Source: Haliclystus octoradiatus
Taxonomy: Eukaryota > Cnidaria > Staurozoa > Stauromedusae > Haliclystidae
Length of the DNA stretch: 64,000 bases
Reading direction: 5' to 3'
Assembly: GCA_916610825.1 (NCBI GenBank)
Contig: OU744446.1
Span: 34,759,833 to 34,823,832, forward strand
Shown here: one piece after another, positions 13,305 to 54,238 of the stretch
How the letters are laid out: each line of letters begins with the position of its first letter
Position numbering within the stretch: position 1 is the stretch's first letter
Made by a program: the position numbers and the translations under genes
Notes under the pieces: generated by a model
What the model was told of the DNA's origin: nothing
The model's database searches: none
Seen by the model: only the letters and a program-made list of their open reading frames with translations

Positions 13305-13322
13305 TGGCGCAGTTGATACTAA
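13305..13322 (+). promoter_or_regulatory. Primer-binding site
   Basis: TGGCGCAGTTGATACT starts directly after the LTR; TGG pairs with the CCA end of a tRNA. I cannot say which tRNA. Confidence 0.7.
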
Positions 13323-13630
13323 CTTATAAATTTTTTGTTTTACCTTATTATTATTAATTAATATTATTTACTGGCAACGTTTCCAACACAGACAACACAA
13401 TCAGATCACGCACTCTATCGAAGTCCAGTGAGTTTTTAATAAATTTAAATACAGCAATTTGTAAATTGAACTTTTGATATCCTGAAGAAACATCCATGAA
13501 GATTGACATTTAAAGATATATTCTTTAAGGCAAAACTTCAACTTGACGCTCAACATATTTTTATCTTCAATTTCTATGTTTGCTATTGTATTTCCGTGTT
13601 GTGAAATTCTTCACGCTGTTGTTACCCATT

Positions 13631-14293
13631 ATGTCGTCTGACGAAAACAATGAACGCACAACTCAGACAGCACACAGAGCACGTATCGCGGCAAGTCAAA
13701 CGATCGTAGAAAGTCTTGTGTCGAATGCGGTGAGTTCATTCAGAGCTGAAAACACCACCGACTTAGCACATCAAAGCTCACAACAGGATGTTCGTTTATC
13801 TAACATCGAACGCATGGTCGCCAACTTGATCAACGCATTCAGTGCAATTATTTCGCCGACCACAACGTCCAACACCGACCAACCGTCGAGCGTTATGATG
13901 TCAGCAATTCCTGGTCCTTCTGGACATTCAACCGTTTCAATGCCAGGATCCACAGCTATAGCAGTAGCTACACATACTGAACAAACTGTAGATCACGTAC
14001 CTGCAACTACACATTCAGCTTCACAGCCATTAAGCTCAGACACAAATGACGTCAACGTCCAAGCGTCCACAGTAATGACGCCAGCTGTTCAACTTCCACT
14101 AATCAGCTCTCAAACCATTCAAATACGAAGTCATCCAGCTTCAAGTCAAGCTCAAAGAGTTGATACATCAGCACAACCGGAACCTCTGACAAAAATTTTC
14201 ACCTTACTTAAATTGACCAACGCTACATGTTCGACCAACGCTCCCTTCAAGAGCAACACATTCGACTTGAAGGGTGCATTTCAACTGACATGA
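13631..14293 (+). CDS. gag: Gag N-terminal part of the Gypsy element
   Basis: Begins MSSDENNERTTQ at 13,631; the in-frame ATG at 13,580 is upstream and would add a hydrophobic stretch unlike gag. The protein is Ser/Thr/Gln-rich and lacks motifs. The frame closes at 14,293, while capsid-like sequence continues in the -1 frame from 14,209. No slippery heptamer of the X XXY YYZ type is seen in the overlap, so I read this as a frame-breaking mutation inside gag, not programmed frameshifting. Confidence 0.7.
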   Translation: MSSDENNERTTQTAHRARIAASQTIVESLVSNAVSSFRAENTTDLAHQSSQQDVRLSNIERMVANLINAFSAIISPTTTSNTDQPSSVMMSAIPGPSGHSTVSMPGSTAIAVATHTEQTVDHVPATTHSASQPLSSDTNDVNVQASTVMTPAVQLPLISSQTIQIRSHPASSQAQRVDTSAQPEPLTKIFTLLKLTNATCSTNAPFKSNTFDLKGAFQLT

Positions 14294-16893: not shown

Positions 16894-18318
16894 GACTTAA
16901 ACCAAGCAGCTGATGTCGACCAAGAGTATCAAGACCTCATCAAAGCTATCAAAGAAGAATGTCAACCGTGCAACTTACCTTCACATTTGAAGCAGTACAA
17001 AGGTGTTCTTTTTGATCTATCATTGCAAGACCAATATGTTCTTTACAATGGTTATCGCCTGCTGATACCACGGTCACAGCGACGTATGATGCTTGATCGT
17101 CTACATACTGCTCATCAAGGCATCGAGCGTACAAAAAGAAGAGCACAGCAATCATGCTACTGGCCTGGCATATCTAATGATATACGCAACATAGTTGAGT
17201 CTTGTGATGCCTGCAACATCCATCAGTATTCGCAACAGAAAGAAACCTTTCTCTCTGGCCAACACCCTAATAAACCATTTGAGCAGTGTTCAGCTGATTT
17301 ATTCTCTGCTGGCACAAAAAAGTTTCTGGTCTACGTCGATCGTTACTCTAGATGGCCGTGTGTACATGATTACAATGCTGATCCTAATACTACAATGGTC
17401 ACTTATTCCATGACCAATTTCTTCAGAGATTATGGTGCTCCTATAAATCTTCGCACTGATGGTAGACCACAATTCAAATCAGAAGAATTTGATCAATTCT
17501 GCAAACACTGGGGAATCAAGCATGACCCATCGTCACCTTATTATGCTCAAAGCAATGGTCATGCCGAGGCTGGCGTCAAAGCCATGAAAATATTAATCAA
17601 GAAAAATATCACGGAAAACAACCACTTCAACAAAGCCAAGCTGAGTGAAGCCATTTTAGAATTTCGTAATACTCCAAAAGCTGATGGCTTATCACCAGCT
17701 CAAAGAATATTTGGTGTCCCCATGCAAACACGTCTACCAACTCATCAGCTGGCATTTGACAGAAAATGGTATAAGACTGCAACGGAGGCTGATGAATTTG
17801 CTGCGAAGACAAAATTAACAAACATCGATCATTACAATGAAGGTGCCCGTAATCTTGTCCCATTGGTCATTGGCGATGAAGTACGAATTCAAGATACTAC
17901 CAGTAAACGCTGGGATAGAGTCGGTCTCATTACAACTACGTTGCCATTTCGACAATATCTTGTCAAACTTCCATCTGGCACTGTTCTAGCAAGAAACAGA
18001 AGACACCTCTGGAAGCCGAAGAAGACTCATCCAACATCCAATGACGAGACGACTCATCCAACATCCAATGACGAGACGACTCATCCAACATCCAATGACG
18101 AGACGACTCATCCAACATCCAATGACGAGACGACTCATCCAACATCCAATGACGAGACGACTCATCCAACATCCAATGACGAGACGACTCATCCAACATC
18201 CAATGACGAGACGACTCATCCAACATCCAAGGACGAGACGACTCATCCAACATCCAATGAGAAGAAAAATTATCCAAAACGAAAGCAGAGAAGCCCTGAT
18301 CGCTACTATGGACAGTAA
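16894..18318 (+). CDS. Integrase of the Gypsy element, downstream of an in-frame stop
   Basis: Inserts the DNA copy into the host genome. In the same frame as the RT segment and separated only by the TGA; the first Met after it is at 16,987. It has the H-H-C-C zinc domain (HTAHQGIERTKRRAQQSCYW ... CDACNIHQ), then a DDE core: Asp in CSADLFSAG, Asp in LRTDGRPQF and Glu in SNGHAEAGVK. A short C-terminal domain (VIGDEVRIQD, DRVGLITTTLPFRQYLVKL) precedes a nine-residue tandem repeat and a basic tail ending RSPDRYYGQ. Without readthrough or repair this part would not be translated from the upstream start. Confidence 0.93.
   Translation, partial: DLNQAADVDQEYQDLIKAIKEECQPCNLPSHLKQYKGVLFDLSLQDQYVLYNGYRLLIPRSQRRMMLDRLHTAHQGIERTKRRAQQSCYWPGISNDIRNIVESCDACNIHQYSQQKETFLSGQHPNKPFEQCSADLFSAGTKKFLVYVDRYSRWPCVHDYNADPNTTMVTYSMTNFFRDYGAPINLRTDGRPQFKSEEFDQFCKHWGIKHDPSSPYYAQSNGHAEAGVKAMKILIKKNITENNHFNKAKLSEAILEFRNTPKADGLSPAQRIFGVPMQTRLPTHQLAFDRKWYKTATEADEFAAKTKLTNIDHYNEGARNLVPLVIGDEVRIQDTTSKRWDRVGLITTTLPFRQYLVKLPSGTVLARNRRHLWKPKKTHPTSNDETTHPTSNDETTHPTSNDETTHPTSNDETTHPTSNDETTHPTSNDETTHPTSNDETTHPTSKDETTHPTSNEKKNYPKRKQRSPDRYYGQ
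18025..18261 (+). repeat. 27-bp coding minisatellite in the integrase tail
   Basis: Units start at 18025 and every 27 bases to 18241: eight full plus one partial. Each codes for Thr-His-Pro-Thr-Ser-Asn-Asp-Glu-Thr. All are identical except unit 8 (Asn to Lys). The frame is preserved, so length changes remain in frame. Long frames on other strands here are by-products. Confidence 0.97.
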
Positions 18319-18413
18319 TATTTCAAAAGATAATCAAAATAGCTAAAGAGTTTGTTTTTTCCATAAACAAATATATCATAAAAATTCACATTATAACCTT
18401 AATTTTAATAATC

Positions 18414-18425
18414 TTGAAGGGGAGG
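18414..18425 (+). promoter_or_regulatory. Polypurine tract
   Basis: TTGAAGGGGAGG-type purine run immediately before the 3' LTR, the expected primer for plus-strand DNA synthesis. Confidence 0.85.
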
Positions 18426-18631
18426 TGTAGTAATATTAGAATTAGCCTCTCATTGATGTCGCCTCTCTTCTATCTAGGGATAAACCTCAACCTAAGGAGA
18501 ATCAAGCATTCGTTGTACGTTGCTACATGCAACCAGTATTATATAATCAGAGTTATACAAAGTGTATTGATTTGTCTCGTATAGTCCATGTGTCTTACAT
18601 TGATCGATACTCATAGTAACAACTCATCACA
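18426..18631 (+). repeat. 3' LTR of the Gypsy element
   Basis: TGTAGTAATATT ... CATCACA, 206 bp, same length as the 5' LTR with three substitutions and no indel. Confidence 0.97.
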
Positions 18632-37800: not shown

Positions 37801-40800
37801 ATTTATTTTTTTTCCACTTAATAGGGTGGCTAAGAAAAAAATTTCCAGAGAATTTTGGTTCTCTTCGGTACCCCCCCCCCTCCCGTGGAATAAATAATGA
37901 ACGGTCCCTTATATTATAACTTTGATTCTATTCTGATATCTGAACGAGCTTGGTCGTATTATTCTGCTCTCATTGTTTAATAGCTATAAGTACCCGCGTA
38001 ACACCTGTGCTTTTGGGACACTGCTTATGTACGACGGTGAATAGATCTCAATTTTGTTCTGCAGTCATCAGTGGTACCCGGCGTTGATCGCTGATACCTC
38101 CTTATTTAAATTGAAACTAGGCTTGATAAGCAGATGGTAATAACCATCCTGGCATTCAAAGTTATAGAAATCGACAGCTTCAGATTCCAGATTTTCTCCT
38201 ACATATTGCACTAAGTATATAATAGAATATCAACAAAGCCTTCCACAAAAACATAAACTTGAAAATTTTGTATTTATTTTTATAGTTGATGGTGCTTGGT
38301 CGGAATGGGCAATTGACAGTACGTGTACTGATACTTGTGGAGGTGGGACACGAGATTTGGTTAGAGTATGTGATAATCCATCTCCAGTTGGCGCTGGAGC
38401 CGCATGCCCTATCCAACCTGATGGTGACGCAAAGACAGAACCATGCAACCCGGATCCTTGTCCAGGTAATGCTTCATCATATCACATATTTTGTAAAAAT
38501 TTCCGGTATTGAATTGTTATCATGTGGGTTCTTAAAAAATGTTGGCACTTTATAAACACGACAGGAATATTAAACATAATTAAAAAAATTGTTCTTAAGC
38601 ACGGGTGTCAAGTGCCCCCTGTTGATATTAGTCTAATTTCAGCAATTTAAAAACCCTTTGTATCATGTATTGAAGAAACTGAAACTGTGCGGCAGGGGCT
38701 ATCCATGGCAACTTAGAGGGGAAATGCTATATCCGTATATATGTAGAGGTTGTAAAGTATTATTCAGCTGTTCGTATAAAGAATCCTATGTGCGTTTATA
38801 CATTTGAAGCAGTGAAATACTGAAATTATATCGCACATTTAACGTGCCAGCAAACGCAGGGGCGGATACAGAAAATTTTGTGGCTGACTCAAAGAGGGGA
38901 TAGTAGTGGGGCGATGCCCCAAGAAATTAGGGGTTTGGCTTTGGGGGAAACTTTTTAAAATTTGCCTCAGATACAGATTTAATATTTATTAATAATATTT
39001 ATTAAGCCACTTTTTATCGCTATATCGAATCAAAGATCGAGCTGAGAATTATAAGAAGGATAATGTACTTCATGTAGCTTGAATAGAGGAAAAGTGGGTA
39101 TATCCAAGATCGATTTCCCAACAATCTGTGACCATTTAGCAAGATCTATAAATGTTTTTTAATTCGCCATCAGAAACATAAAACGCTAGCTTCAAAGATC
39201 TCTTCGTGATCAATACTCAGAATGAAACGCTATCTGTCTATTTGTCGATTTAAATTAATTACCTATTATTTTTACAAGAATATTTAAATAATTCGAAGAT
39301 AGCAACAATATCTTATTTCATCAGTTTTCTACCTATTGAACATCACTCGTCATACTCCTGACTTAGGCAAACGGCTTTAAGTTAAATTATTTTTCTTCTG
39401 TTTTGCACGAACTATTTACTAAATCTTCACATAATTTGAGCCAAGTTATTGCCCTTTCAAGAAATATTCTCGTCAATTAAAAAGTATTCAGCAGCTTGCC
39501 CGCCCTCTTGCTTAGGTAAAAGTTGACGCTGCAAGACGTTGGAAGTTTTTCTATTCTGTTGTAAATTTGTAGTTCTGCATCATTGATGATCCACTGGCGC
39601 CTGGCAACGTCATCAGATGTATCATACTTCAAATTCCTAAGCATCACCTAGCCATTTTATTGGTTTTAGACTTTTCAGCTTCACTGCTGATACATCTGAA
39701 ATGACGATTTAAAAGTAAGGGCAACGTCTCATTATCTTCATCATCGTTTATTTGTCCATGCGAGAAGCCACATAGGGAAGGGGATAGAAGACCCATGAAT
39801 AAATACAATTAATATGCTTAAAAGTAACGCTTAACAGAGTTTGGAAAAGAATCATGTTCGAAGAAAGCTAAAAAAATCGAAAAACTTTTTTCTTCGAAAT
39901 GTTGACTGACTCACTTGAATCAGTTGCGATAGTCTGAGTCCATCCCTGAAACGAATAGTCCCAAGATTAGCAGAGAAATTTGAATCATCAGTCAGCATAC
40001 TATTTATATTCAAATCTTTTAAGTTTACGATATGCAATTGTTTATTATACCAATATAAGTCATTCCGGACAGAAATTGTTTGTACGCCAGACCAATTTTT
40101 ATTAAAATAATATTGATCGTCATCAAAATTTCAGGATTAAAATGTCTTTGCAAAATTCCAAATATTTTCTGCTGGTTATTGTATCAAGAAATATTACGAT
40201 GTACATCCTCGTTGTAGAAGAAGCAAATATATTAATTCATCACATGCTTGGTAAATAAGAGGAGCATAACTAAAGGGTTGCAACACACTTGCTCTACACA
40301 AAGAATGTAATAACCCTTCCTAAAATAGAAAAGCTAGATTCAACAGCGAATTTTCATTTCAAAACCTCAAAATTGAAATTTCAATTCATAAACAAAATAA
40401 AGGGAATTCAGTAGCAAGATAGTTATTGTTGTATATACAAATACATATAAGAACGCCTGTAGAATAAATTAGACAACAATTCTCCAGGAAATATATATGT
40501 ACTAACCGTTATTTAAATATTAGGTTAACATTGAGACAGTATCATTGTCCTTCATATTGTGTTTTTATTTTCTATGCTGCACAACCAATTACTCTTTTAC
40601 CACACTTTTCAATAAACATAATTGAACATGTTGAGCTAAATATCGCTTTATAAATCGTTGCTGTAACTGAGAAATTTATTTGATATATTTGTATTCATTT
40701 CTATAACGATAAACAAACATTATCATCATATAAATTGTAGTTGTTCAAAGATCATTTCTAGAATTCTGGCTAATAATTCTCAACAGAAGGAGCAATACTC

Positions 40801-43800
40801 TAACTTTATTAAATAATATACGTACATTTTTGAAAAGTGCTTATTCTGTAAGTGTTTTCTTTTGATCTTTGACTGCAAATGCTGTAAACAAGGACGACTG
40901 TGCGTTCTGGATCTGATAGATTCAGTAGCTTTAATTTTAAATCCATGATAAATAGCTTATTTGATACTTTGATTTGATAATTTAGTGATGATATACTGTA
41001 TATTAATAAAAATTTCACTCGGGGACGCCAATTATTGGTGTCGTTCTAGACAGAGAGTACGCTTGCATTATTTCTGAATAGAATTGACTATACTTCAACA
41101 TACACTGCAAGATTATTCTAAGATCATATGACTTTAGTAGTTGCACAATAATCACAGTCAGTAAGTATTTACATGTTTATAAATAGGCGACTACGTCAAA
41201 ACTGATTATTATCAATGCCCTCAGTTGTCTCTCTTATACAATAAATTGTTACCACTAGACTAGTTATCTATAGTTATCTATAGGTTATCAATCAAAATGT
41301 CCATGGATTAAGTTAAAACTTCAAATTGTTAGTCTTTCCTAAATAGAGAATGCTTTGATGATTTTATTTCTTCAATTAAACATTGCAGATCCTATTGTTC
41401 TTCAGCATTGAACATCTGACAAAATCTCTTTGCAAAATCACGAAGGAAGTTTTAGAAAAATGTTAATTCTAAAATCTCCAAACACCGTCATGAACCAACC
41501 AATCAGATTGCAGGATTACGCTCGATTATAACGTTTGATTTTGTAAGAATATTGCCATTCACAGAGAAAAATCTACCAAAATAATGGGAATTGGCGGCAT
41601 ATTAAAATCAGACTTTATTAAAATCGATGATGGAATAAAGATTGCCGATTCTATTGTTCAAAATCAAGGTGTTCCTCAAGGTGACAGTTTGTCTCCTACT
41701 TTATTTCTTTTATACATATCTGATCTATCAAAGGTTTTAAAAGATATTATTGGTTTGAACATTTTAATTTTTGCTGATGGTCTTGTAAGTTACTCCAAAG
41801 ATCAAACAATACTTCAAGCTGGTCTGGTCTGGACATAGGCGTAGGAGCTGGGGGGGGCAGCGAAGGCAGTTGCCCCCTCAAACGCATTTGAGAAGAAAAA
41901 AATCGGGCACGTTTTCAAGCAAATCAACAAATTATAAGGTTTTTTTGTTACAGTGAAAGTGTTCAGGAAATTTACTCTGTATTAATAAAATTCAACACTT
42001 CACAAAAACAGTTTTATGAACAGGAGTATACTATCCATTGTAAGCCTACTGGCAAATTCCTAAGCATCACCTAGCCATTTTATTGGTTTTAGACTTTTCA
42101 GCTTCACTGCTGATACATCTGAAATGACGATTTAAAAGTAAGGGCAACGTCTCATTATCTTCATCATCGTTTATTTGTCCATGCGAGAAGCCACATAGGG
42201 AAGGGGATAGAAGACCCATGAATAAATACAATTAATATGCTTAAAAGTAACGCTTAACAGAGTTTGGAAAAGAATCATGTTCGAAGAAAGCTAAAAAAAT
42301 CGAAAAACTTTTTTCTTCCAAATGTTGACTGACTCACTTGAATCAGTTGCGATAGTCTGGGTCCATCCCTGAAACGAATAGTCCCAAGATTAGCAGAGAA
42401 ATTTGAATCATCAGTCAGCATACTATTTATATTCAAATCTTTTAAGTTTACGATATGCAATTGTTTATTATACCAATATAAGTCATTCCGGACAGAAATT
42501 GTTTGTACGCCAGACCAATTTTTATTAAAATAAAATTGATCGTCATAAAAATTTCAGGATTAAAATGTCTTTGCAAAATTCCAAATATTTTCTGCTGGTT
42601 ATTGTATCAAGAAATATTACGATGTACATCCTCGTTGTAGAAGAAGCAAATATATTAATTCATCACATGCTTGGTAAATAAGAGGAGCATAACTAAAGGG
42701 TTGCAACACACTTGCTCTACACAAAGAATGTAATAACCCTTCCTAAAATAGAAAAGCTAGATTCAACAGCGAATTTTCATTTCAAAACCTCAAAATTGAA
42801 ATTTCAATTCATAAACAAAATAAAGGGAATTCAGTAGCAAGATAGTTATTGTTGTATATACAAATACATATAAGAACGCCTGTAGAATAAATTAGACAAC
42901 AATTCTCCAGGAAATATATATGTACTAACCGTTATTTAAATATTAGGTTAACATTGAGACAGTATCATTGTCCTTCATATTGTGTTTTTATTTTCTATGC
43001 TGCACAACCAATTACTCTTTTACCACACTTTTCAATAAACATAATTGAACATGTTGAGCTAAATATCGCTTTATAAATCGTTGCTGTAACTGAGAAATTT
43101 ATTTGATATATTTGTATTCATTTCTATAACGATAAACACACATTATCATCATATAAATTGTAGTTGTTCAAAGATCATTTCTAGAATTCTGGCTAATAAT
43201 TCTCAACAGAAGGAGCAATACTCTAACTTTATTAAAATAATATACGTACATTTTTTAAAAGTGCTTATTCTGTAAGTGTTTTCTTTTGATCTTTGACTGC
43301 AAATGCTGTAAACAAGGACGACTGTGCGTTCTGGATCTGATAGATTCAGTAGCTTTAATTTTAAATCCATGATAAATAGCTTATTTGATACTTTGATTTG
43401 ATAATTTAGTGATGATATACTGTATATTAATAAAAATTTCACTCGGGGACGCCAATTATTGGTGTTGTTCTAGACAGAGAGTACGCTTGCATTATTTCTG
43501 AATAGAATTGACTATACTTCAACATACACTGCAAGATTATTCTAAGATCATATGACTTTAGTAGTTGCACAATAATCACAGTCAGTAAGTATTTACATGT
43601 TTATAAATAGGCGACTACGTCAAAACTGATTATTATCTATGCCCTCAGTTGTCTCTCTTATACAATAAATTGTTACCACTAGACTAGTTATCTATAGTTA
43701 TCTATAGGTTATCAATCAAAATGTCCATGGATTAAGTTAAAACTTCAAATTGTTAGTCTTTCCTAAATAGAGAATGCTTTGATGATTTTATTTCTTCAAT

Positions 43801-46800
43801 TAAACATTGCAGATCCTATTGTTCTTCAGCATTGAACATCTGACAAAATCTCTTTGCAAAATCACGAAGGAAGTTTTAGAAAAATGTTAATTCTAAAATC
43901 TCCAAACACCGTCATGAACCAACCAATCAGATTGCAGGATTACGCTCGATTATAACGTTTGATTTTGTAAGAATATTGCCATTCACAGAGAAAAATCTAC
44001 CAAAATAATGGGAATTGGCGGCATATTAAAATCAGACTTTATTAAAATCGATGATGGAATAAAGATTGCCGATTCTATTGTTCAAAATCAAGGTGTTCCT
44101 CAAGGTGACAGTTTGTCTCCTACTTTATTTCTTTTATACATATCTGATCTATCAAAGGTTTCAAAAGATATTATTGGTTTGAACATTTTAATTTTTGCTG
44201 ATGATCTTGTAATTTACTCCAAAGATCAAACAATACTTCAAGATGGTCTGGTCTGGACATAGGCGTAGGAGCTGGGGGGGCAGCGAAGGCAGTTGCCCCC
44301 TCAAACGCATTTGAGAAGAAAAAAATCGGGCACGTTTTCAAGCAAATCAACAAATTATAAGGTTTTTTTGTTACAGTGAAAGTGTTCAGGAAATTTACTC
44401 TGTATTAATAAAATTCAACACTTCACAAAAACAGTTTTATGAACAGGAGTATACTATCCATTGTAAGCCTACTGGCAAGCCTTCTTCTTATCATGTTCCA
44501 ATCTAATATCCATAATTTTATACAATAATAATGGTTGCTGTATCGCTAAGTTATTTTCAAGATTCCACCCCACCCATTTTGCAATATAAGAAATCCAGAA
44601 CTCAGCTACACCCTTTATATATATTAATGTCTAGAAAGATTAAGACTGTGATGACATGAGCACTGTTACATTGACCCAAATGTGTAAGTGGAAATTTTTT
44701 AGGTCAATTTTCGGGCAGATCAAGCTATTTCTTATACCTCTTTGCAATAAAATTATTCAGTCATTCGATATTTCGCGGGTTATACGTAACATTGTCCTGA
44801 AAAAATATAATTAAATTAATCAGTAAACAATAATCCAAATTTTCTTCCTCGCTCTGCTCGCAACAATTCTTCGCATCAGATCATATAGGGATTAGTGAAG
44901 CAGATCAATAAAGTGCCAAAGTAGCAGAAGCTGTTTATCTAGCACCAAAGTCTTTTCAGGTGCCTATTCCTCGTCATAATTGTTTCCATATTTGTTCATT
45001 TTTGATTGTTGCTAAACAATTTAAACTTTGGTATTTCCTCCACGCGACGTGAACATTTTCGCTATATTAACTTGCAGGACTTGATTTATTTAAAAGACTA
45101 CTATTTACGAGTGGTTACTATTGGTTCACTATTTGCCATACAATAGGCGTGTCTCGCTCTTTCAAAATAAATACATAACCCAGTGCTGCATATTAAAGCG
45201 TATTTTACGGTGCCTAAAATACATTGTTATATGCAGCAGCATATTCTGCGCAAAGGTGTCTAAACAGTCAAAGGAAATAAAAGTAAATGCCTAAAATAGG
45301 ATGGCCTACTTGACGAAGCAGGTATGACTAAAACGGTCTTTATAACGATCCACTACAGGGAGAAATTAACATCATTATTTACACCGTAAAGCTGAGTTGC
45401 AGGAGGAATGGATAAGCTGATAACGGCTTTTTGAACTCAATAAAAAATTATATAATCATATAATTGCTTAAAATGAATGTAAAATGAATATGTTTCAATT
45501 ATGTAATGACGGTATTAAGAAATTTGTGGGGCTGAAGGAGGCCTATGATGTTTGTGATTGTATCCTGTGATATATCTTTTGCAATTTTGCATGTGAGTTA
45601 CCTCTTATAACAACATTTCCCGTAAAAAGTTTTTCGGCAAAACCGTTTTTGCCCCCCTGATTGGAAATGTGCCCCTACGCCTATGGGTCTGGATATTCTT
45701 TCCGATTGGTGTTCTTCAAATGTGTTACAAGTTAATCTTAACAAGACCAACATCATTAAATTCCGAAAAGGTCGTCGCCTTTGTGCGGCTGATCGTTTTA
45801 TTTATCATGGAGAGCAAATTGCCTTTACAAATAGTTATATACATACCTTGGAATAACTCTTCAGACATCATTATCATTTAATTTACATGTACTTAATAAA
45901 AAGACAAAGTTGATAATCGCTATTGCTTCAATTAAACATTTAAGACGTGTTTCTATAGAGTCATTTATCAAAATTTTCCATATGAAACATTCCTCAGTCG
46001 TAACATATGGTTTTGAAGTTATAGCCCCATATTTGACTAAAACTGAGCACCGAGGTACCATTATCAATACGTAGACGTAGACCCTACGCAAACATTAGAC
46101 AGAATACATTGTTCTATACGGTTAGCATGCCCAACGAACGAAATGACAATGACATCGAACATTCATGTTCCATGAAAATGTTCTTCCGTTTTGACCTAGC
46201 TAAATATATATTGTGCCACGGAATTCTGTATCTGCCTGATATAAGATCGTTATAAAAGAAATCTTAGCATACTTGTAAATATAAATGTGCTTTACTGATG
46301 TTTCTCGCAATTCATTCAAATGTCTAAGTGAAAGTATTTCCTCCTGTAAATTTCCATGAAAATGGTATCTCTGATGCATATTCATGATCATCATATCAAA
46401 TAGAGCTATGCAAGCAAAGTCTTTGATATCTATAATTTTAAGATTGTTTATTAAAGTTTATAATAAATATTTTTATTTAGTTGATGGCGGCTTTACAGAT
46501 TGGGAAGATACACCTGGCGAATGCTGCTTTACTGGATTCCAGCAACAAACACGGACATGCACAAATCCAGCACCTGTTGGATCAGGGAATGATTGTGTAG
46601 GCCCATTAACGCAAAACATTCAGTGTCCTGATCCACAATGCGGTAAGCGGATCTGCTAATAAGAATTCATAATGAAGTATTATTATGCTCTATCGCAGGA
46701 TTTGACTTCTGTCAAGCTGTTCACTCGAAAGTTTCATTTTTTTGTATTAAAATTTATCTCACAATTAGCATGAATTTGCTCGGGGTCAAAAAATATGCTC

Positions 46801-49800
46801 AATAGTACTTTTTTCCTTGATTTACTATTTAATGATTTTGAAAACAGTCAACTACTGTCTTTTAGAATATGCTGCTTTAGGTATCGAAATTTAGATCACG
46901 ATTAACTAACAATTCCTTAGCTACTTTCAAATTCGGTCATGCATCAATCTTTTTGTTATCTGGATTTCGAGTTTAAAAGTATTCTGCTATATTTTAGAAT
47001 ATCAATTCCACATGCCAATCAAAAAATAAAGAGGTATACGAAATATATCCGATACCGTAGCTAATAAATTACTATGAATACGATATAAAAAATAAAAAAA
47101 AATACAAAAGCACACACACACACGTACACAATGGTGGATTCCTGTAATGATGTAAAATATTCAAATATATCTTTAGAGCTGTCGAAAATATTATAACTAG
47201 AAAATATGTTGTTGTTCGTGCTTCAAGAAACTGATTCTGGCAAGTTGTAGCTCTTTAAAATGCTGAAAACTTCTCAGTTTTGAATGATTGTTGTGATGGA
47301 GATGAAAGCCATAGATTTATTCCTGTAGTCAGTGTCTTACTAAGTATGATCAAAAATCAAGCAAGCATTAAAAAGAAATTGAATAAACTCTTAAAAGGTA
47401 TATGTTTTTATCCATAACTTGACGCCATGTGAACCCCCGACTATTTCATCTTTCGAAGACGTAAATTTTGTGAAAACAATAAGATCAGATAAGCCGGCGT
47501 TGGCATAGTCCTGAATTTCAGATTCAAATAAAATTCGGTTAGTAAATGTGATTGAAAAGCTGCTTTGCAATAAATATGATAACGAGTTTAACAACTAGAG
47601 CTAGATCATGATAGTCAAATGCTATTCTATAAAGCAGTGAAGAGTTGATGAGAACTGTAGAATTATGTTGAAGAAATAATAATAACAACGTAGGTTGAAT
47701 TGATTTGTACGGTATATTTCTTCTTATGAATAATAATATTAATTCCAAGTTGACATGTTGATAGTAGACTGTACATTCAGTTCTCATAATTTTCATAGTT
47801 TTCATTTACTGTATTTATAGTGTTTAGATAAATGCTAGAAGCTGCTAGATCATGCATGGTCATTGTGAGTCATGCTGGGAGTCATGTAGGTTCTCCTATG
47901 TTCTAGAATGTTCTAGATGGTTCAGGAAGGTTCCTACAGAGTTAAACTTGAAAATGACCTCTTTCTCATTAAAAAAACAAGCAAGAGTAGTTATTACGCA
48001 ACTCAGAATTTGCTGTCCCAGGTATAGGAGTCTAGTAACCCAACAAAATAATTTTCTGATAAGTATAGTTTATGCTATTGATATGCTACCAACGTTCTTT
48101 AGTTAGCACAAAATAGTCCGCTGATGGGAAGTAGAGATCTGTTACCCTTGCGCGGGAACATTGATAGAGAAACACGCAGAAGAACAAATCTCTTGTAGCA
48201 ACTAGAAATTAGGATGTCCTGAGCCTTGTTTCTAGCGAAAATTCATAACATGCTCATAAATTGGTGCAGCCTTCGGAAAGGTAGTTTCGATGAAAAAGGC
48301 GTATTTCAATAAAGGGCTACACACACTTGCCATGTTTGTATTCGAATTTACTACACGAGAAAAAGCTGATGAAAGACACGAGCAAAGCTTTTTATACATT
48401 TGATTTACATTGCTTTACATGACACTTTACAAGGTATATACGTGATTGCAAGCGGAAGTTTTACTGTTAACAAAGCCATTACATTTTCGTGATGAGCCGA
48501 TTATTATTTTTCCGATTACCGATTACGATTATTTACCGATTAAGAGCTTGATTAATATACCGATTACCGATTAATTACCGATCATTTTCCTTTTGTTATA
48601 TAACAATAAAAACGTGACAATGGGCCCTTAAATTAACAACGAAAACAAAACAAAATATTTACATAAATCAAATAGAACATTAAGTGTCACCTCTGTAAAT
48701 AATGTTGACTAAAATAAGCTGAAATTTTATTAAATGTATTGATATATTAATAGTTGAAATCGCTCAGTGCAGTCGCTCAGTTTTGTTTACATCGTTTAGT
48801 AATTCAAAACCTATTCAAAACATTCGAATGATTCGTCATGCCACTTGACACCTTCTATTGTTATAAAGTGATAAAGGTCAACACATAGCGTTGATGAATA
48901 AAACACGCGAGCATGTTTGAATGAATAATTTTACTATGAAAAAGAAAGCGGCCGTCGGGTTTTAATTTGTGGGAAACAGTTTTGAAAATAGTTAAAATGG
49001 TTTGATGTTTAAAAAATGTTTGTACACAGATTTCGTTTTTATTATTTTGGATAAAGCAGTCTTCAAAGTTGGAAAGATATACAAATTATTTACAGGAAAA
49101 AGTCGCTTAGTTGTGTCACAGGCAAACTTCTGCTGTCGGATATTAATTGTCTATACAAACTTCGCAAGTAAAAACCATTTTGTAAGGTTTTCAAAATAAG
49201 AACAATTAAAGAAATGATGGTCGCGCTGATGTTGTTTATGCCTATTATCACTAATCATAGTATAATCATAACAGAACAATCATATTGCAAATTGATTCAG
49301 ATCAAACCAATGACAAATAACAGGTACAAATGACAGGAAATTGCTAAGATTAATAATCGGTTTGCAAGTGTAAAAGACTAAAAAAAAGCCGATTACCGAT
49401 TATTTCCGATTAGTGCTATAAAAGGCCGATTACTGACAATTCCGATTAGTTACCGATTATTCGGCTCATCACTATTATGTCATTTTGGCTAAAAATAGAC
49501 ATAAAACGACCCACTACAAACGCCATGTACTTTTAATAGCGTACATTTTGATCTGGATAATTTCTATCTGCCATGTCGGAATGGGTATGGTATATGACTA
49601 AAGTGCGGACAATGATATTTTGAGCCCACGGTGGTCTGTGCGATACATAATTCATTGATTATTGTCATTATTTATTATACTATTCGTTCATGATACGCAT
49701 GCGTTGAATGCTTTGTTTGACTTATGGGAAAAAACCCGCATAGGGATAGTAAGGCCACATGGATTATATAAATAAATTGTACTTCAGAACAAATATCAAT

Positions 49801-51742
49801 GACCTGCAGTAAAATTTATCTATATAATCAATGTGTTCGACTGTTCACGAATTTCTCTACTCAAATGACATGCAACTAAACAAAATAATTATGATTAACA
49901 GTATATAAAGGACACACCGGAGTGTCTGGGTGTTGGAATTGTATACTTTTATATATCCAACTCAATTTTTAAACTCAAAAGTTCAGTAATACAATAAAGA
50001 CATATTAAATTTAATATATTGAGGATAAAGAACAAGAAATATTATGTCTCGAATGTATGGGACAAAAATGTATAGGACAAGCGCTGTTACATTCATAGCA
50101 ATTGAGTTCGAAAGTAATGTAAAATTGCAATAATTGTCATGATAAATACCTTCGTAAGCTATTGCAACACTCGAGCAGTATAGAGAAAATCTTCAAATCT
50201 TTATGGATAGATATAACGGAAAAGTACCATTAACAAATCCTTAATATCTATCTCTCTCCCCCTTTTACAAGGCCCTTACTCTTCAATGAAAATGAACAAG
50301 GTTAAGAAGATGATGATCACGCCGACTGCTTAATTTGTGTAGGTTGGTTTCCGGAGACCATCAAATTAGTATATCTGTGGTATTCCATTATTTATTCCCC
50401 TGTATGGGCTGCATTTATATGGTTGCCTGGAGACGTTTGTTGGAATTGTGATTGTTTGGGCTGGAGCATCATCATAAAGTAGACAGTAATAAAACAAAAG
50501 GAAGTTCATTGCCTTCAAAGACGTGCGTTTCAACTCCATTTATGTATAATTTTGGATCAACACAGTGAACGCAAAAGTTGACGCTGCGAAAAAAACTCCC
50601 AAAATTTGTATCAATTTTCCTGAATCCGCTGTTGCAGGTGGCTGTCTAAGAAATTTTCCTCAAAAAATCTATATCTTTAATATTTTTTTGCAAGTAAAAT
50701 GAAATCAATCACGAACATATTGAAAAAGATATAGACTAAGGCATTCGTTTGGATATAATTGCACTTTTTCAGCGCATCACAAACCAACCGTCCTATGCCC
50801 TGAATTTTTAATGGTGCCGACTAATTAAAATCCCTGCTTTTTATTTTTCTATTATGATTAAAAATTTGTTAGTACCACAATCAAAACAAAACAATTAATA
50901 ATGTGATACAAGACGTCATAACCGTCTAATATTCTATTTTTAGATTTATTTAATTCTTTTGTTGATAAAAGTAGGTACTATCTCTAAATTGTATACTTCA
51001 GCCAAATTCCAACAGAATTGAATAAGAAACAAAACAAAAAGATTAGGCCCAGACAGTCCCCTTAGCTTTTTCAATTTTTTTTCACAAATCAAATTCAAAA
51101 CAAAACGTTTTCATTCTTGAGATTTCAATTCACCTTATTTCTGCCCGCAAGATTATCAACCTATGAAATTTTTAAAATCTCTAAATTTCTTTATGCAATG
51201 ATATCAAATAAACTATCAATGAAGAGTTTATTATTTCAAAACAATGCCAGAATTATGATAATATTCATACAAAAAATACGTTACTGTATATGGTTATATT
51301 GACACAAGTGTTTCTTTATTTCCCGACTATGGATTATCAGTATTATTTTTCCAGTGAGACGTACATTAATCACGAACATACCACAAATAACTTATTTACA
51401 AACAGACGCAATAATAAGTATAAGTAGATTTATATCTATCTTGTATTATTTCTCTAGATCTTCACTAAACTTTTTGCTCAATCAGTATTCACTTGCATAA
51501 TTTAGTAAGCGGACACTTACTTCGCAATACAAAATGTTCTCATTCATAGATTTTTATCTTCTTTTCTAGTGGATGGAGGTTGGAGTGCATTTTCTAATAA
51601 TGCAGTGTGTAGCAATCTTTGTGGTAGTGGTATTAAAGTTGAGACACGTACGTGCGATAATCCTTCTCCAGTTGGCATTGGTGCTGATTGTGTAGGCAGC
51701 AGTGCTTGGACAGTGCATTGCTTCGATACCTCTGGTTGCTAA
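22699..51742 (+). CDS. Secreted multi-TSP1 protein gene, 7 predicted exons, 380 residues
   Basis: Predicted extracellular protein with a signal peptide and six thrombospondin type-1 modules. Exons: 22699-22813, 27446-27619, 29116-29283, 36148-36318, 38286-38465, 46481-46642 and 51570-51742. All introns are phase 1 with GT...AG; the total of 1,143 bases equals 380 codons plus stop, which supports the model. One module per exon, each opening with Val-x-Gly-Trp/Phe, is the classic shuffled-exon layout. The O-fucose-type motif C-x-x-T-C-G occurs in modules 1, 2 and 4 and is altered in 3, 5 and 6. No transmembrane segment, EGF, protease or spacer domain is seen, so it resembles short TSP1-only matrix or defence proteins more than ADAMTS. 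Introns run 1.5-8.0 kb and are full of repeats. Extra exons could have been missed. Confidence 0.8.
23639..23945. repeat. Perfect (TTTCTA)n microsatellite, about 51 copies, in intron 1
   Basis: About 307 bases of uninterrupted hexamer, ending at TTTCTAG. The long Phe-Leu and Phe-Tyr frames over it are by-products. It is not the animal telomere hexamer TTAGGG. Confidence 0.98.
24030..27445. other. Rest of intron 1
   Basis: AT-rich with no recognisable gene. It contains imperfect ATC-rich repeats at 26,303-26,350 and around 27,332-27,352, and a pair of TGATCA sites at 25,711-25,745 near a palindromic CATCATGATCAG. Frame 26,860-26,958 (FIRDAMPFNLRPPAIG) looks coding-like but I cannot place it. 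Confidence 0.3.
27446..27619 (+). CDS. TSP1 gene exon 2: module 1
   Basis: Flanked by TTTGCAG and GTATGTG. Residues V-QCHEWTGWTACDVTCGTGTR: the W-x-x-W (C-mannosylation type) and CDVTCG (O-fucosylation type) motifs are both present. The second half is atypical, rich in His and Tyr (SHCYKTITQSCHSYYVC), so this module diverges from the others after the first strand. Confidence 0.75.
28037..28330. mobile_element. 294-bp foldback MITE in intron 2
   Basis: Long imperfect inverted repeat: GTAGGTCATCT on the left and AGATGACCTAC on the right, with GCATCTGGTACCTTT inside mirrored by AAAGGTACAAGATGC. Outer ends are CAGC...GCTG. No clean target duplication. Confidence 0.65.
29116..29283 (+). CDS. TSP1 gene exon 3: module 2
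   Basis: Canonical six-cysteine TSP1: NGGWSAY, CSVTCGGGTKVGTRTC, then C-x-G...C...C ending DLCPG. It carries the O-fucose-type CSVTCG and the Arg of the TRTC strand that stacks on Trp. Acceptor TTCTAG, donor GTGAAT. Confidence 0.85.
30385..30601. mobile_element. 217-bp MITE with CCCGGGGG-TAACTC termini
   Basis: Left end CCCGGGGGGTAACTC, right end GAGTTACCCCCGGG. Flanks TATAAAGG and TATAAAAG could be an 8-bp duplication with one mismatch. The interior GGTATACGGGGACGTGCC recalls a repeat common in marine invertebrate genomes (memory, not checked). Confidence 0.75.
31097..31480. mobile_element. 384-bp MITE with ~70-bp terminal inverted repeats
   Basis: The left arm begins GTAGCCTACGTTACAGAC and the right arm ends GTCTGTAACGCAGACTAC. 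Both arms also share GCGATTCATTCAC, AGGGTCTGTGTGA-type sequence and TTCTCTGTCC at their inner ends. Flanks AAAAGAC/AAGAGAC are an imperfect 7-bp match. Confidence 0.8.
33310..33480 (-). pseudogene. LINE ORF2 C-terminal fragment in intron 3
   Basis: The minus strand reads VVPWWNDLPIEVVSSKSL then SIFKCKLSIID, a typical non-LTR ORF2 end. A frameshift lies just upstream. The LINE tail at 36.5 kb has the comparable VIPWWNSLSEKLVTSSS, so the two are related. Confidence 0.65.
34898..34953. repeat. 56-bp near-perfect palindrome
   Basis: Arms CGTGCAGGTATAGGTCTATA and TATAGACCTATACCTGCACG around a central CCGCACATGTGCGG-type core. Only one of 28 base pairs is mismatched (34918/34933). There is no spacer, so it could extrude as a cruciform. 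Not obviously part of a larger element. Confidence 0.95.
36148..36318 (+). CDS. TSP1 gene exon 4: module 3
   Basis: EGGWSGYSILDPCTGCGPG: the first cysteine pair is closed up (C-T-G-C), losing the O-fucose-type site. It continues TRQCNNPAPQNNGGTC and ends IPCDG. Acceptor ATCCTAG, donor GTAAGG. Confidence 0.85.
36520..36873 (+). pseudogene. LINE ORF2 C-terminal fragment in intron 4
   Basis: The frame reads NYADRLNKLDIESLEARRIK, ADLSLIYKILHG, then CCRVIPWWNSLSEKLV and FSTFKRGLDE, ending at TAA 36,871-36,873. This is the classic thumb/C-terminus of CR1/L2-type LINEs, uninterrupted over about 115 codons, so the insertion is not old. It sits about 200 bp after exon 4. Confidence 0.8.
37314..37908. 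mobile_element. 595-bp Harbinger-like MITE in intron 4
   Basis: Terminal inverted repeats of about 45 bp: GGGACCGTTCATTATTTA on the left and TAAATAATGAACGGTCCC on the right, with mirrored inner GGGGGGAGGTACCGAAGAG. It is flanked by TTA on both sides, the 3-bp target duplication of PIF/Harbinger elements (family knowledge). No transposase inside. Confidence 0.85.
38286..38465 (+). CDS. TSP1 gene exon 5: module 4
   Basis: DGAWSEWAIDSTCTDTCGGG: W-x-x-W and the O-fucose-type CTDTCG are both present, the most canonical module. It ends NPDPCPG. Acceptor TTTATAG, donor GTAATG. Confidence 0.87.
38857..38960. mobile_element. One end of a hAT-like element
   Basis: CAGGGGCGGATACAGAAAAT followed by GGGGCGATGCCCC. 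The CAGGGGCGGAT-CAG start is a common hAT terminus (family knowledge). No matching right end was seen within the intron. Confidence 0.4.
41539..41833 (+). pseudogene. LINE reverse transcriptase fragment, copy 1
   Basis: GVPQGDSLSPTLFLLYISDL then NILIFADGLVSYSKDQ. The catalytic F-A-D-D box is mutated to F-A-D-G. It ends at the hAT element left edge. Confidence 0.85.
41834..42052. mobile_element. hAT-type element, left 219 bp only (copy 1)
   Basis: CATAGGCGTAGGAGCTGGGG start preceded by GGTCTGGA; cut off where the second duplication unit begins. Confidence 0.85.
43962..44257 (+). pseudogene. LINE reverse transcriptase fragment, copy 2
   Basis: Same as copy 1 but with an intact NILIFADDLVIYSKDQ box. 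Followed by the hAT element and then, at 45,694, by the rest of the same domain. Confidence 0.85.
44258..45685. mobile_element. 1,428-bp hAT-type non-autonomous element
   Basis: Left terminus CATAGGCGTAGGAGC, right terminus GCCCCTACGCCTATG, an inverted repeat of about 12-15 bp. It is flanked by the perfect 8-bp duplication GGTCTGGA (44,250-44,257 and 45,686-45,693), the hAT signature. No transposase frame inside. Confidence 0.9.
45694..46095 (+). pseudogene. LINE reverse transcriptase, C-terminal continuation
   Basis: Continues the domain split by the hAT element: DILSDWCSSNVLQVNLNKTN, YLGITLQTSLSFNLHVLNKK, then KHLRRVSIESFIKIFHMK and VTYGFEVIAPYLTKTE. Small frame changes occur near 45,740-45,790. 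The fragment becomes unreadable after about 46,095. Confidence 0.75.
46481..46642 (+). CDS. TSP1 gene exon 6: module 5
   Basis: DGGFTDWEDTPGECCFTGFQ: the first Trp is replaced by Phe and the cysteine pair is adjacent (CC). TRTCTNPAPVGSGNDC and DPQCG are normal. Acceptor TTATTTAG, donor GTAAGC. Confidence 0.82.
47640..47938 (+). mobile_element. Interspersed repeat with heat-shock-element-like array, copy A
   Basis: Matches the reverse complement of 52,582-52,880 over about 300 bp with clear divergence. The right end carries TTC at 47891, 47901, 47911, 47921 and 47931, with GAA at 47906 and 47926 (GAT at 47916): alternating TTCnnGAA pentamers as in heat-shock elements. Family unknown. Confidence 0.75.
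47891..47934 (+). promoter_or_regulatory. Heat-shock-element-like array
   Basis: Inverted TTC/GAA pentamers at 5-bp steps from 47,901 to 47,933 with one imperfect unit. Three adjacent inverted nGAAn units suffice for HSF binding (established knowledge); here seven are in register. Activity is inferred only. Confidence 0.5.
48489..49472. mobile_element. 984-bp hAT-like element with CCGATTA subterminal repeats
   Basis: Ends GTGATGAGCCGA and TCGGCTCATCAC form an inverted repeat. Both subterminal regions (48,497-48,590 and 49,388-49,465) are crowded with CCGATTA in the same orientation. TGATG-GCCGATTA ends recall hAT elements. No clean 8-bp duplication and no transposase. Confidence 0.65.
51570..51742 (+). 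CDS. TSP1 gene exon 7: module 6 and stop
   Basis: DGGWSAFSNNAVCSNLCGSG, ETRTCDNPSPVGIGADC and a final DTSGC followed at once by TAA (51,740-51,742). The O-fucose-type Thr is replaced by Leu. Ending on the last cysteine of the module is typical of short TSP1 proteins. Candidate poly(A) signals: ATTAAA at 51,925 and AATAAA near 52,407. Confidence 0.87.
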
Positions 51743-51960
51743 CTCCTTTATGTGTTTAAAACAGGACTTAATTTACCTGTAATCAATTAACTATGTTTTT
51801 CTAATAATTAATTTATGTGTTACAAACTTTATCATTGCTCACAAGTAGAAATTAGTAACGTAACTGAATGCCTTTTAAATTGTTGCAATAATACCAAGAT
51901 GATCTTGATATCTTTTTAAATTTAATTAAATTGTCTTTTCAACAATAATATTGTTATTTT

Positions 51961-52550
51961 AAACTGAAATTGCCTTCAAGACTCAACTACAATGATTTCA
52001 AGTTAAAACAGCATGCATTGAAAGAATCTGAAAACACCAACAGAAACAATAAGCTCCTTTCAATACTAAACGTTAATTCACTGTTTGAAATCTGTGAAAG
52101 ATTTGAATGAGCATTCTAAATCTGAAGCAATGCAATGATTCCAGCAAATGCTACAGAACAAGTTTGGGAAATGTGCTTGTAAATCTTGTTCAGAAAGGAC
52201 AATGCATGGTTATATGTGTGCAACCTCTACAATGGAAGAGAGTTTAACAGAAATTGAAAATAGCCTGATTACCTTAATTCAGAGGGAAGTGGTGCCATCT
52301 ACTTCTGGTCAAGGCAAATTATTTGCATAAGCTGTAATATCAAATATAAAAACGGTTGTTGACGAGGGTAGAATTTAAAATATGTTTAAAGGCAAATGAG
52401 CAAGATAAATAAAGTATTTGCACATTAATCTTAGCAAATATTCCTATCACAGTTGGAGGAGAAACTGGCGATCTGGCTGAGATATCAAATGACGAAACTA
52501 ATGCAGTAGCAATGTTCAACTCAATTGTTGCTAGGGCGATGCCATTGTAA
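51961..52550 (+). other. Coding-like pieces, unrecognised
   Basis: Three short frames look non-random: 51,961-52,110 (LPSRLNYNDFKLKQHALKES), 52,148-52,330 (FGKCACKSCSERTMHGYMC) and 52,437-52,550 (ITVGGETGDLAEISNDETNA), the last after an AG acceptor. They may be parts of one decayed element. No family recognised. Confidence 0.25.
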
Positions 52551-52581
52551 CTGCAACAATAAGACTAATAATAGACTGTAT

Positions 52582-52880
52582 AGGAACCTTCCTGAAACAG
52601 GTAGAACATTCTAGAACATAGGAGAACCTACATGATCCTCCGCATGACTCACAATGACTATGAATGATCTAGCAGCTTCCCAGTAGTGTTTATGTTAAAC
52701 TCTATAAATACTATAAATGAGAACTCTACCGGAACTATGGGAACTTAATGTGCAGTTTACTATCGACATCAAATTCGAAATATTATTATCATTTATGAGA
52801 AGAAATATATCAATCATATCAACCTACGTTTTTATCCTTGTTTCTTCAGCATAAATCTGCAGTTCTCATCAAAACAATTC
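52582..52880 (-). mobile_element. Interspersed repeat with heat-shock-element-like array, copy B
   Basis: Inverted relative to copy A at 47.6-47.9 kb. GAA occurs at 52584, 52594, 52604, 52614 and 52624, TTC at 52589 and 52609, so the 10-bp register is kept although other bases have diverged. The similarity ends at GGAACC on this side, probably the element terminus. Confidence 0.75.
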
Positions 52881-53742
52881 TAATGCAAATAACACAGTAA
52901 TTTATACCTATCCATTGTTGAAAGTGACCTTGATAAATTCATAATCTCCTACGAAACTATTGATTGCAAGAAGACTACTCAAAGAAGACTCAAAATTCCA
53001 GGGAATCAATGTGTGTCCCAGTTGAAATTTGCAATCACGTCAACAGCAAGTCTACAACAGTAGACTTGAAATCAATATTGTGTGCAGTAAAGTTGTACTC
53101 TGAAACACGAGTGATAGAAGATAAGTAGTGTCTGTAATGGGGCCATTTTAGATTGCGCATGTCTTGAAAAAATAACGCGTACGATTGCTCACAATCTCTC
53201 ACATGTTGGTAAGACAAAATGGATTCATCTGTTTTTGTTTTGAAAAAGAAGAAAGCGATATTTGTTTTAAGTTTATATGCTTGCTTAGATTAGTTGAAAG
53301 ACTTAGAAAGGTATCACAACTCAAGAGAAATCATTATTCAACATAATTATACACTCGTGTTGGAGTGATTACACGTTATCGACAATGGTTATTTACTTTA
53401 AAACAGTAAAGTCAATGTGGCATATCAATATTGGCGAAGAAATAGGCAATTACTCAACTAAGTATCTGTCGTATATTATCAGAAGTTCACATAAAGAGAA
53501 CAACAGTCTGCATTGGCCATTAAGTAGAATCTAATCTTCATGTTTCACACACAAGATTATAGATAATGTAAAGACTAAATAAACGAGGCCACGTAATAGT
53601 GTATAGGAAGCTGCTCCATTATCAACTAATACAGAGGCTATTGGATAACCGTTATATGACTACTTCCCCTCTTCTAGGTTCAGATAATATATTAAGTAGC
53701 AAGATAATAAAAAGAAGAAAGATATATAATTACATTATATAT

Positions 53743-54238
53743 TCATACATCATCAATGCCATATCGAGACGGTGGCTTAGATTCTCTAGAAGAAGGCCTA
53801 GGTCCACCATTAGAGGCGTTATCTAAGTCACGGGTCGATACATTGTCGCTCGAGTCAGTGTAATCAATCTGATTTGAATACCGTTCCCCATTATTTAAGT
53901 TGGGTTGCACCTCAGAAACTTCAGATGGTAGTCGACAAATTTGATTATTTGAAGCAAGCCCTGTACGTCCCTCCAATTTCAGCCATGACTGCACGTTCTG
54001 CTAAACCATTAGATCGCGGAAAATTTTCTGGATATTCCAATTTGTAGCAGCCAAAACTCGCAAGCCAATGGACAATGTCGTCATTGATAAATTCACGCGC
54101 GTTGTCAGAAAGAAGATGTTTCGCAACTCCGAAGCGGGAGTATAGGGCCGAAAATATACGTATAATATGCGGGGTTGATCTATCAGGGCATGTAAATGCT
54201 TCAAACCACCCTATACCTGCACAGTAAAATCCATTTGC
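53743..54238 (-). pseudogene. Gypsy integrase core and tail fragment
   Basis: Minus strand: GIGWFEAFTCPDRSTPHIIR, LYSRFGVAKHLLSDNAREF (second catalytic Asp), then LEYPENFPRSNGLAERAV (catalytic Glu). A frame break follows, after which KLEGRTGLASNNQICRLPSE leads to the basic tail RPSSRESKPPSRYGIDD. The first Asp region and zinc domain are missing. Related to the tail at 3.0-3.3 kb and different from the intact Gypsy at 13-18 kb. Confidence 0.8.

What the first reader, a model, noticed from the sequence alone, without database searches (positions are those of the whole stretch)
47891..47934. Mobile repeat carrying a heat-shock-element-like array, conserved in two inverted copies
Copy A has five TTC triplets exactly 10 bp apart with GAA midway, a near-perfect run of inverted pentamers. 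Copy B (52,584-52,626) keeps GAA at the same 10-bp steps on the opposite strand although the rest has diverged. HSF binds such arrays. Repeats spreading heat-shock elements are known from Caenorhabditis Helitrons, so this element may bring heat-responsive transcription into an intron and the 3' flank of the TSP1 gene.
Basis: partly seen in the sequence, partly recalled or inferred. Interest (0 to 1): 0.72.

Follow-up and report, generated by a model that had tools for sequence, protein, structure and literature searches.

The report
Retrotransposon LTR carrying heat-shock-element array
The repeat is the control end (LTR) of a young, multi-copy family of non-coding retrotransposons in what appears to be an animal genome; it starts with a string of heat-shock-factor binding motifs, which may let stress switch the element on.

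Summary
In detail: copy A has 7 of 9 pentamers in register; the best of 300 simulated 64-kb sequences had 5. The repeat is a 293-bp LTR (window 47646-47938, minus strand) with TG...CA ends and a 4-bp target duplication (GAGT); its U3 opens with the array, and TATAAATA follows 72 bp downstream. Copy A is a solo LTR. Copy B (52577-52871) is an older LTR shared by three duplicated loci. Elsewhere pairs of LTRs bracket 1.1-3.2 kb without a long ORF: 18 of 19 pairs have exact 4-bp duplications, 14 of 19 identical LTRs. The primer site matches tRNA-Tyr over 12 nt. A 4.8-kb relative encodes protease-RT and integrase in Ty3/gypsy order. So this is a non-autonomous Ty3/gypsy-type family, not a Helitron. 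The genome has 439 six-pentamer sites in this register, 263 of this LTR's type; reversed controls gave 0. Three 53-54-bp insertions hold the array alone with perfect duplications. HSF binding and heat induction are inferred, as in plant ONSEN and Drosophila copia. Copy A points antisense to the TSP1 gene; heat control of that gene is not supported.

The parts
47646..47938 (-). Copy A: complete 293-bp solo LTR (TGTAGGAACC ... CTCATCA in transcription direction)
   Evidence: Same ends in most of 67 distinct LTR rows; exact TSD
47642..47645 (.). Target-site duplication GAGT, left
   Evidence: Sequence; identical to 47939-47942 (ACTC/ACTC in LTR orientation)
47939..47942 (.). Target-site duplication GAGT, right
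   Evidence: Sequence
47891..47933 (-). HSE array of copy A, 7 of 9 inverted pentamers, at LTR positions 6-48 (5' end of U3)
47866..47872 (-). TGACTCA (AP-1-like motif, name recalled) in U3, LTR position 67
47812..47819 (-). TATAAATA box of the LTR promoter, LTR position 120
   Evidence: also in copy B and in most long-subfamily rows
52577..52871 (+). Copy B: older LTR, about 82% identical to A; flanks AGAC/AAAC (3 of 4, decayed TSD)
   Evidence: present in duplicated loci L030 and L031
52584..52626 (+). HSE array of copy B, 7 of 9 pentamers
46480..46641 (+). TSP1-domain exon upstream of copy A (host gene, sense strand +)
   Evidence: Pfam TSP_1 E=0.0064, below the curated cut-off; splice donor GT follows
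51570..51742 (+). Last TSP1-domain exon with stop codon, between copies A and B
   Evidence: Pfam TSP_1 E=2.4e-6

Best explanation
The repeat is the LTR of a young, non-coding (TRIM/LARD-like) retrotransposon family that depends on a related Ty3/gypsy element for its enzymes. U3 opens with a run of inverted nGAAn pentamers, followed by a TGACTCA motif and a TATA box. SHOWN: LTR anatomy, 4-bp target duplications, a 12-nt tRNA-Tyr primer site, a coding relative with the same LTR ends and primer site, array abundance, and host HSF and hsp70 genes. INFERRED: that the coding relative supplies the enzymes; and that under heat or proteotoxic stress host HSF trimers bind the array and drive the LTR promoter, giving RNA that the relative's proteins reverse-transcribe and integrate. 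Solo LTRs such as A are left by LTR-LTR recombination and remain as scattered, possibly heat-responsive promoters. In copy A any such transcript would run antisense through the TSP1 intron.
For: LTR structure: 18 of 19 distinct pairs have identical 4-bp TSDs and 14 of 19 have zero LTR differences; 7 of 17 unpaired LTR rows, copy A among them, have exact TSDs. PPT-like GGCGGGGGGAGTTA precedes the 3' LTR and ATTGGTCCGTCGAA follows the 5' LTR. The primer site matches a tRNA 3' end found 11 times exactly (control 0), one of which folds as tRNA-Tyr(GTA) when introns are allowed (without introns ARAGORN called it tRNA-Leu). The long subfamily has LTR pairs about 4.79 kb apart; two pieces of one copy give RVP, RVT_1 (E=3.1e-37), Integrase_H2C2 and rve. 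Promoter logic: in A the array ends 72 bp before TATAAATA; in one host hsp70 promoter (L082) the HSE spans 313-330 and the TATA-like box starts at 409. The array (7 pentamers) is fuller than the hsp70 HSEs (3 exact pentamers each in L082 and L083). Three HSF DNA-binding-domain matches exist. Genome-wide 439 six-pentamer sites vs 0 reversed, 263 of this LTR's type. Core bases are better conserved between subfamilies than the rest. Precedents: ONSEN's HRE binds HSFA2, and copia of Drosophila has heat-shock consensus sequences and heat-induced expression (PMC3907296, passages).
Against: No expression or binding data. The whole 5' ~105 bp of U3 is conserved between A and B, not the pentamers alone, and p about 0.02 for the core test is modest, from two related comparisons. 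The coding (long) subfamily carries a broken array: 3 pentamers, a 1-bp deletion, then 2. The longest unbroken run in A is 3 pentamers. Copy B's target duplication is only 3 of 4. The PPT has TTA between the purine run and the LTR, and the primer match is only 12 nt, three of them the added CCA. The host HSF genes were seen only as domain-sized matches, one with a stop inside the match.
Confidence: 0.66

Rival explanations
1. The LTR identity is right, but the pentamer array binds another factor or serves retrotransposition (integrase/end structure, or helical-phase nucleosome control) rather than HSF.
For: The array abuts the U3 terminus, TGTAGG recurs inverted as CCTACA at LTR position 49, and insertions ending at that CCTACA exist. 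Motifs spaced at one helical turn suit several roles. The coding subfamily tolerates a register break.
Against: Integrase is generally taken to need only the terminal ~10-20 bp (recalled). GAA/TTC alternation at exactly 5 bp is the HSF signature, and the array sits where a promoter-proximal HSE would.
Confidence: 0.18
2. The array is a by-product of short repeat expansion (GTTCT/AGAAC pentamer slippage) with no regulatory role.
For: A second, unrelated repeat in this genome consists of tandem GTTCATGAAC palindromes that also score as HSEs (L084-L089), so such arrays can arise as satellites.
Against: The LTR array is not a simple tandem repeat: spacers differ while triplets agree, and its core is 21/21 identical between A and B while the LTRs are about 82% identical.
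Confidence: 0.12
3. Helitron carrying HSEs, as in Caenorhabditis.
For: HSE richness resembles the published case (PMC6927752, passages).
Against: Direct LTR pairs, 4-bp target duplications in 18 of 19 pairs, tRNA primer site and a coding Ty3/gypsy relative. Helitrons make no target duplication (recalled).
Confidence: 0.01
4. Steroid-receptor-type half sites (TGTTCT) rather than HSEs.
For: The plus strand of copy A reads TGTTCT twice in a 10-bp step.
Against: The half sites are direct repeats, not inverted with 3-bp spacing, and the remaining pentamers do not fit (recalled consensus; no receptor search was made).
Confidence: 0.03

Closest known systems
ONSEN / ATCOPIA78 of Arabidopsis (PMC3907296, PMC5059998: passages read)
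   Same: LTR retrotransposon with a cluster of nGAAn motifs in the LTR; few CpG sites (2 in 293 bp here; ONSEN's promoter has none).
   Different: Ty1/copia in a plant, with shown HSFA2 binding and heat induction; here Ty3/gypsy-type, mostly non-autonomous, array at the very start of U3, no functional data.
copia of Drosophila (as described in PMC3907296, passage; the original 1985 paper was not read)
   Same: Animal LTR retrotransposon with heat-shock consensus sequences in its promoter and heat-induced expression.
   Different: Ty1/copia and coding; said there to lack further nGAAn copies needed for high-affinity binding and to be transcribed without heat. Here seven pentamers.
HSE-bearing Helitrons of Caenorhabditis (PMC6927752, passages)
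   Same: A mobile family supplies a large share of the genome's HSEs.
   Different: Rolling-circle DNA transposon; HSF-1 occupancy and heat-induced neighbours shown there.
HSE in the bovine leukaemia virus LTR (review PMC10236774, passages)
   Same: HSE in U3 upstream of the core promoter of an animal LTR.
   Different: Single short HSE in a retrovirus; here seven pentamers in a retrotransposon.
TCN3/TCN12 of Cryptococcus (PMC12810828, passages)
   Same: Putative HSEs in LTRs of heat-mobilised retrotransposons.
   Different: Fungal; one or two putative HSEs rather than a seven-pentamer array.
TRIM elements (PMC4528315, start of abstract in a search listing)
   Same: Paired LTRs around non-coding DNA; per that abstract found in plants and even in animals.
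   Different: LTRs (293 bp) and total length (about 1.7-3.8 kb) are larger than typical TRIMs (recalled); the internal region contains several minisatellites.

Membership tests
LTR retrotransposon | Paired direct terminal repeats with TG...CA ends | tested here: met
LTR retrotransposon | Short constant-length target-site duplication | tested here: met
   4 bp in 18 of 19 distinct pairs; in the 19th (L038) the 3' LTR is cut at LTR position 269 and runs into an inverted LTR piece
LTR retrotransposon | tRNA primer-binding site after the 5' LTR | tested here: met
   12-nt match to a tRNA-Tyr 3' end starting 2 nt after the LTR
LTR retrotransposon | Polypurine tract before the 3' LTR | tested here: inconclusive
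   GGCGGGGGGAG followed by TTA before the LTR
Non-autonomous (TRIM/LARD-like) | No coding capacity between LTRs | tested here: met
   Stop-to-stop frames of at least 80 aa in 4 loci (L009, L010, L015, L016): the longest lying wholly inside an element is 96 aa; these frames were not run against Pfam
Ty3/gypsy (Metaviridae) partner | Protease-RT upstream of integrase in an element with the same LTR ends | tested here: met
   L106 RVP+RVT_1, L107 H2C2+rve, one copy only, pieces searched apart; LTR ends and primer site shared
ONSEN-like heat-activated LTR element | At least 4 adjacent nGAAn motifs in the LTR | tested here: inconclusive
   7 pentamers over 9 slots, longest uninterrupted run 3; the long subfamily has 3 + 2 with a break
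ONSEN-like heat-activated LTR element | HSF binding and transcription on heating | not testable with these tools
   needs bench data
Helitron | No target-site duplication, no LTRs | tested here: not met

The most novel reading that the evidence does not exclude
The array is itself a transposable cassette. It is bracketed by the U3 terminus TGTAGG and an inverted copy, CCTACA, so the family's integrase can use both as ends and insert the 53-54-bp array alone. Three such array-only insertions with perfect 4-bp duplications, and one composite ending at the same CCTACA, are in hand. The genome would thus be seeded with minimal, promoter-less mobile heat-shock elements.
Probability: 0.3. Interest if true: 0.8.

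Novelty: new variant of a known kind. Interest (0 to 1): 0.55.

Why it matters
Heat-responsive LTR elements are well documented in plants, copia is a weaker case in Drosophila, and nematode Helitrons spread HSEs. A young, multi-copy, non-autonomous Ty3/gypsy-type family with a fuller HSE array than the two host hsp70 promoters read here would let one ask directly whether stress drives retrotransposition in an animal and whether scattered solo LTRs rewire the heat-shock response. Array-only 53-bp insertions would be unusually small natural regulatory cassettes.

Tried and rejected
Helitron reading: rejected on target duplications and LTR pairs. RNA-family search of 46500-54000: five matches, all below their gathering scores. 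First tRNA pattern, assuming a 14-nt primer match: 15 hits vs 8 control, no tRNA seen; the 12-nt version succeeded. Using copies found by the HSE pattern for the conservation test was rejected as circular; only copies found by LTR similarity were used. Among the queries behind the 67 LTR rows, those included the array and that did not; one search used a mid-LTR query for the long subfamily. Of the 16 loci fetched's 40 matches, 13 keep GAAnnTTCnnGAA; L091, L094 and L095 do not. L126 at first looked array-only but is a rearranged LTR. Paper searches listed no paper that I recognised as describing an HSE-array LTR in an invertebrate Ty3/gypsy element; only open-access texts are held and only listings and passages were seen, so this is weak evidence of absence. 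Passages of PMC13104882 and PMC9032817 added no closer case. The species was not identified; 'animal' is inferred from the TSP1, HSF and hsp70 genes. On re-checking I lowered interest from 0.60 to 0.55 because the copia precedent had been left out.

Full report
WHAT IS THERE. The window lies in an unnamed eukaryote assembly of 262 Mb. The two arrays are real: 7 of 9 alternating GAA/TTC pentamers in each copy. Copy A has TTC at five 10-bp steps but GAA at only two of the four midway slots. In 300 Markov simulations of the window the best score was 5, once.

WHAT THE REPEAT IS. A search with 47700-48150 scored 40 of 684 candidates and listed 42 matches; 28 of them stop at the same base, 47938, and many lie in same-strand pairs about 1.4-3.5 kb apart. 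In nine loci chosen for nearby matches (L009-L017), eight show 293-298-bp direct terminal repeats at 98-100% identity; the ninth (L017) is two LTR copies almost abutting. Boundaries are TG...CA. Of 67 distinct LTR rows from the held loci, 27 are 5', 23 are 3' and 17 are neither. Of 19 distinct 5'-3' pairs, 18 have identical 4-bp target duplications. The exception is L038, whose 3' LTR is cut at LTR position 269 and runs into an inverted LTR piece. Fourteen pairs have no LTR difference; three have LTRs of unequal length, one differs at 1 base, and L038 cannot be compared. Of the 17 unpaired rows 7 have exact duplications; the other 10 include B and its two duplicates and truncated copies. Copy A is a solo LTR with GAGT on both sides; copy B is older, with AGAC/AAAC.

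ORIENTATION. After the 5' LTR comes AT then TGGTCCGTCGAA. Its complement is the 3' end, plus CCA, of a sequence found 11 times exactly with 0 in the reversed control. Three of these places were fetched: one is a tRNA-Tyr(GTA) gene with a 17-nt intron by intron-aware ARAGORN, and the other two gave no tRNA; the intron-less run had labelled the first one tRNA-Leu. This fixes transcription: copy A on the minus strand, copy B on the plus strand. In this direction the array occupies LTR positions 6-48, TGACTCA starts at 67 and TATAAATA at 120.

WHO MOVES IT. Four loci (L009, L010, L015, L016) show no frame longer than 96 aa wholly between the LTRs, and the internal DNA contains several minisatellites. 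A query from the middle of a divergent LTR (L034) uncovered a second subfamily whose LTRs lie mostly about 4.79 kb apart (40 of 84 candidates scored). It shares LTR ends and primer site. Two 1.5-kb pieces of one copy, searched apart, contain retroviral protease plus reverse transcriptase and then integrase zinc-binding plus core domains, the Ty3/gypsy order. L103 has long-type LTR sequence with the short type's internal start, consistent with exchange between the two.

IS THE ARRAY MAINTAINED? Among young copies identity says little. Between subfamilies, core triplet bases are 21/21 (A-B) and 19/21 (A-C, the L034 copy) identical, against 221/268 and 222/268 elsewhere; combined p about 0.02. 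The first 105 bp of U3 as a block are also conserved between A and B (p about 0.003). Against a strict requirement, the long subfamily has lost one base, leaving GAAnnTTCnnGAA plus TTCnnGAA; 74 genomic places match that long-type array within 3 mismatches (control 0). L031, the oldest relative of B, keeps 5 of the 7 pentamers. In the 67 rows the register is intact (7 hits) in 60.

GENOME-WIDE WEIGHT. The six-pentamer pattern in this register occurs 439 times (reversed control 0). Of these, 263 also match the LTR-specific second half (control 0). Much of the rest, judging by the listed rows and six loci read, belongs to a different repeat of GTTCATGAAC palindromes; being palindromic, it is counted on both strands.

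HOST MACHINERY. Three HSF DNA-binding-domain matches exist, one with a stop inside; that one (L081) reads FASFVRQLNM near the end of its match, as expected for HSF1 (recalled). Three hsp70 loci have open frames of 640-641 aa in one exon. In the two promoter stretches read, exact pentamers number 3 each, and in L082 the HSE ends about 80 bp before a TATA-like box. The LTR thus resembles that hsp70 promoter, with a fuller array.

THE TSP1 GENE. Copy A lies in the last intron and copy B about 0.84 kb after the stop codon. A's promoter points antisense; B is downstream. B and its surroundings (3.36 kb, 98% identical) recur in a duplicate locus about 70 kb away, and a third, more diverged one carries B too. 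B's array is therefore inherited by duplication, not by repeated insertion. No evidence ties the array to TSP1 expression.

ARRAY-ONLY INSERTIONS. Of ten loci fetched because of a spacer variant (L111, L113, L115-L122; L111 and L113 are identical), three (L115, L116, L121) contain only 53-54 bp, TGTAG...CCTACA, with target duplications GTTT, TGTG and AGTG. A composite (L127, other spacer) ends at the same CCTACA with ACTA on both sides. In 62 of 67 full LTR rows CCTACA continues into TGAC, so this is an internal LTR site used as an end; it reads as the U3 terminus inverted. Alternatives are solo LTRs of a sub-lineage with tiny LTRs, or aberrant cDNA. The loci were picked through the array pattern, so their frequency is unknown.

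MECHANISM. By analogy with ONSEN (PMC3907296 and PMC5059998, passages) and Drosophila copia (described in PMC3907296), HSF trimers would bind the array and fire the TATA promoter under stress. This step is inferred, not shown.

VERDICT. A real, non-chance HSE array in the LTR of a young non-autonomous Ty3/gypsy-type family. The kind is known (heat-responsive LTR elements, in animals too through copia); the element type, the seven-pentamer array at the U3 terminus and the array-only insertions make it a new variant.

Noticed in passing
L115:237-289, L116:128-180, L121, L127: Array-only 53-54-bp insertions with perfect 4-bp target duplications, and a composite ending at the same internal CCTACA.
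   Followed up: partly
L084-L089 (e.g. G000:C1:3745200-3745900): A second, unrelated multi-copy repeat made of tandem GTTCATGAAC palindromes, with up to 14 pentamers in HSE register (L087).
   Followed up: partly
window 13099-18631: A separate LTR element with 206-bp terminal repeats (98.5% identical) around long ORFs that read like gag-pol (not searched against Pfam); its LTRs have no TTCnnGAA or GAAnnTTC.
   Followed up: partly
window 48478-49483: About 1-kb stretch in the same intron with CCGATTA repeats and inverted ends, MITE-like.
   Followed up: no
window 39630-44478: 2.4-kb tandem duplication, 99.4% identical.
   Followed up: no
G000:C2:2690105/2694177, 4131258/4135331, 31714339/31718412: Inverted LTR pairs about 4.07 kb apart at several places; L111 and L113 are 100% identical over 598 bp, so the block is recently duplicated or mobile.
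   Followed up: partly
L109, L110: tRNA-Tyr-like 3' ends that ARAGORN does not call as tRNA genes, possibly tRNA-derived repeats or pseudogenes.
   Followed up: no
G000:C1:31793028 and 31794452: An LTR pair of this family lies about 29 kb from the divergent hsp70 gene pair.
   Followed up: no
L038:1716-2077: A 3' LTR of this family cut at LTR position 269 and joined to an inverted LTR piece.
   Followed up: partly
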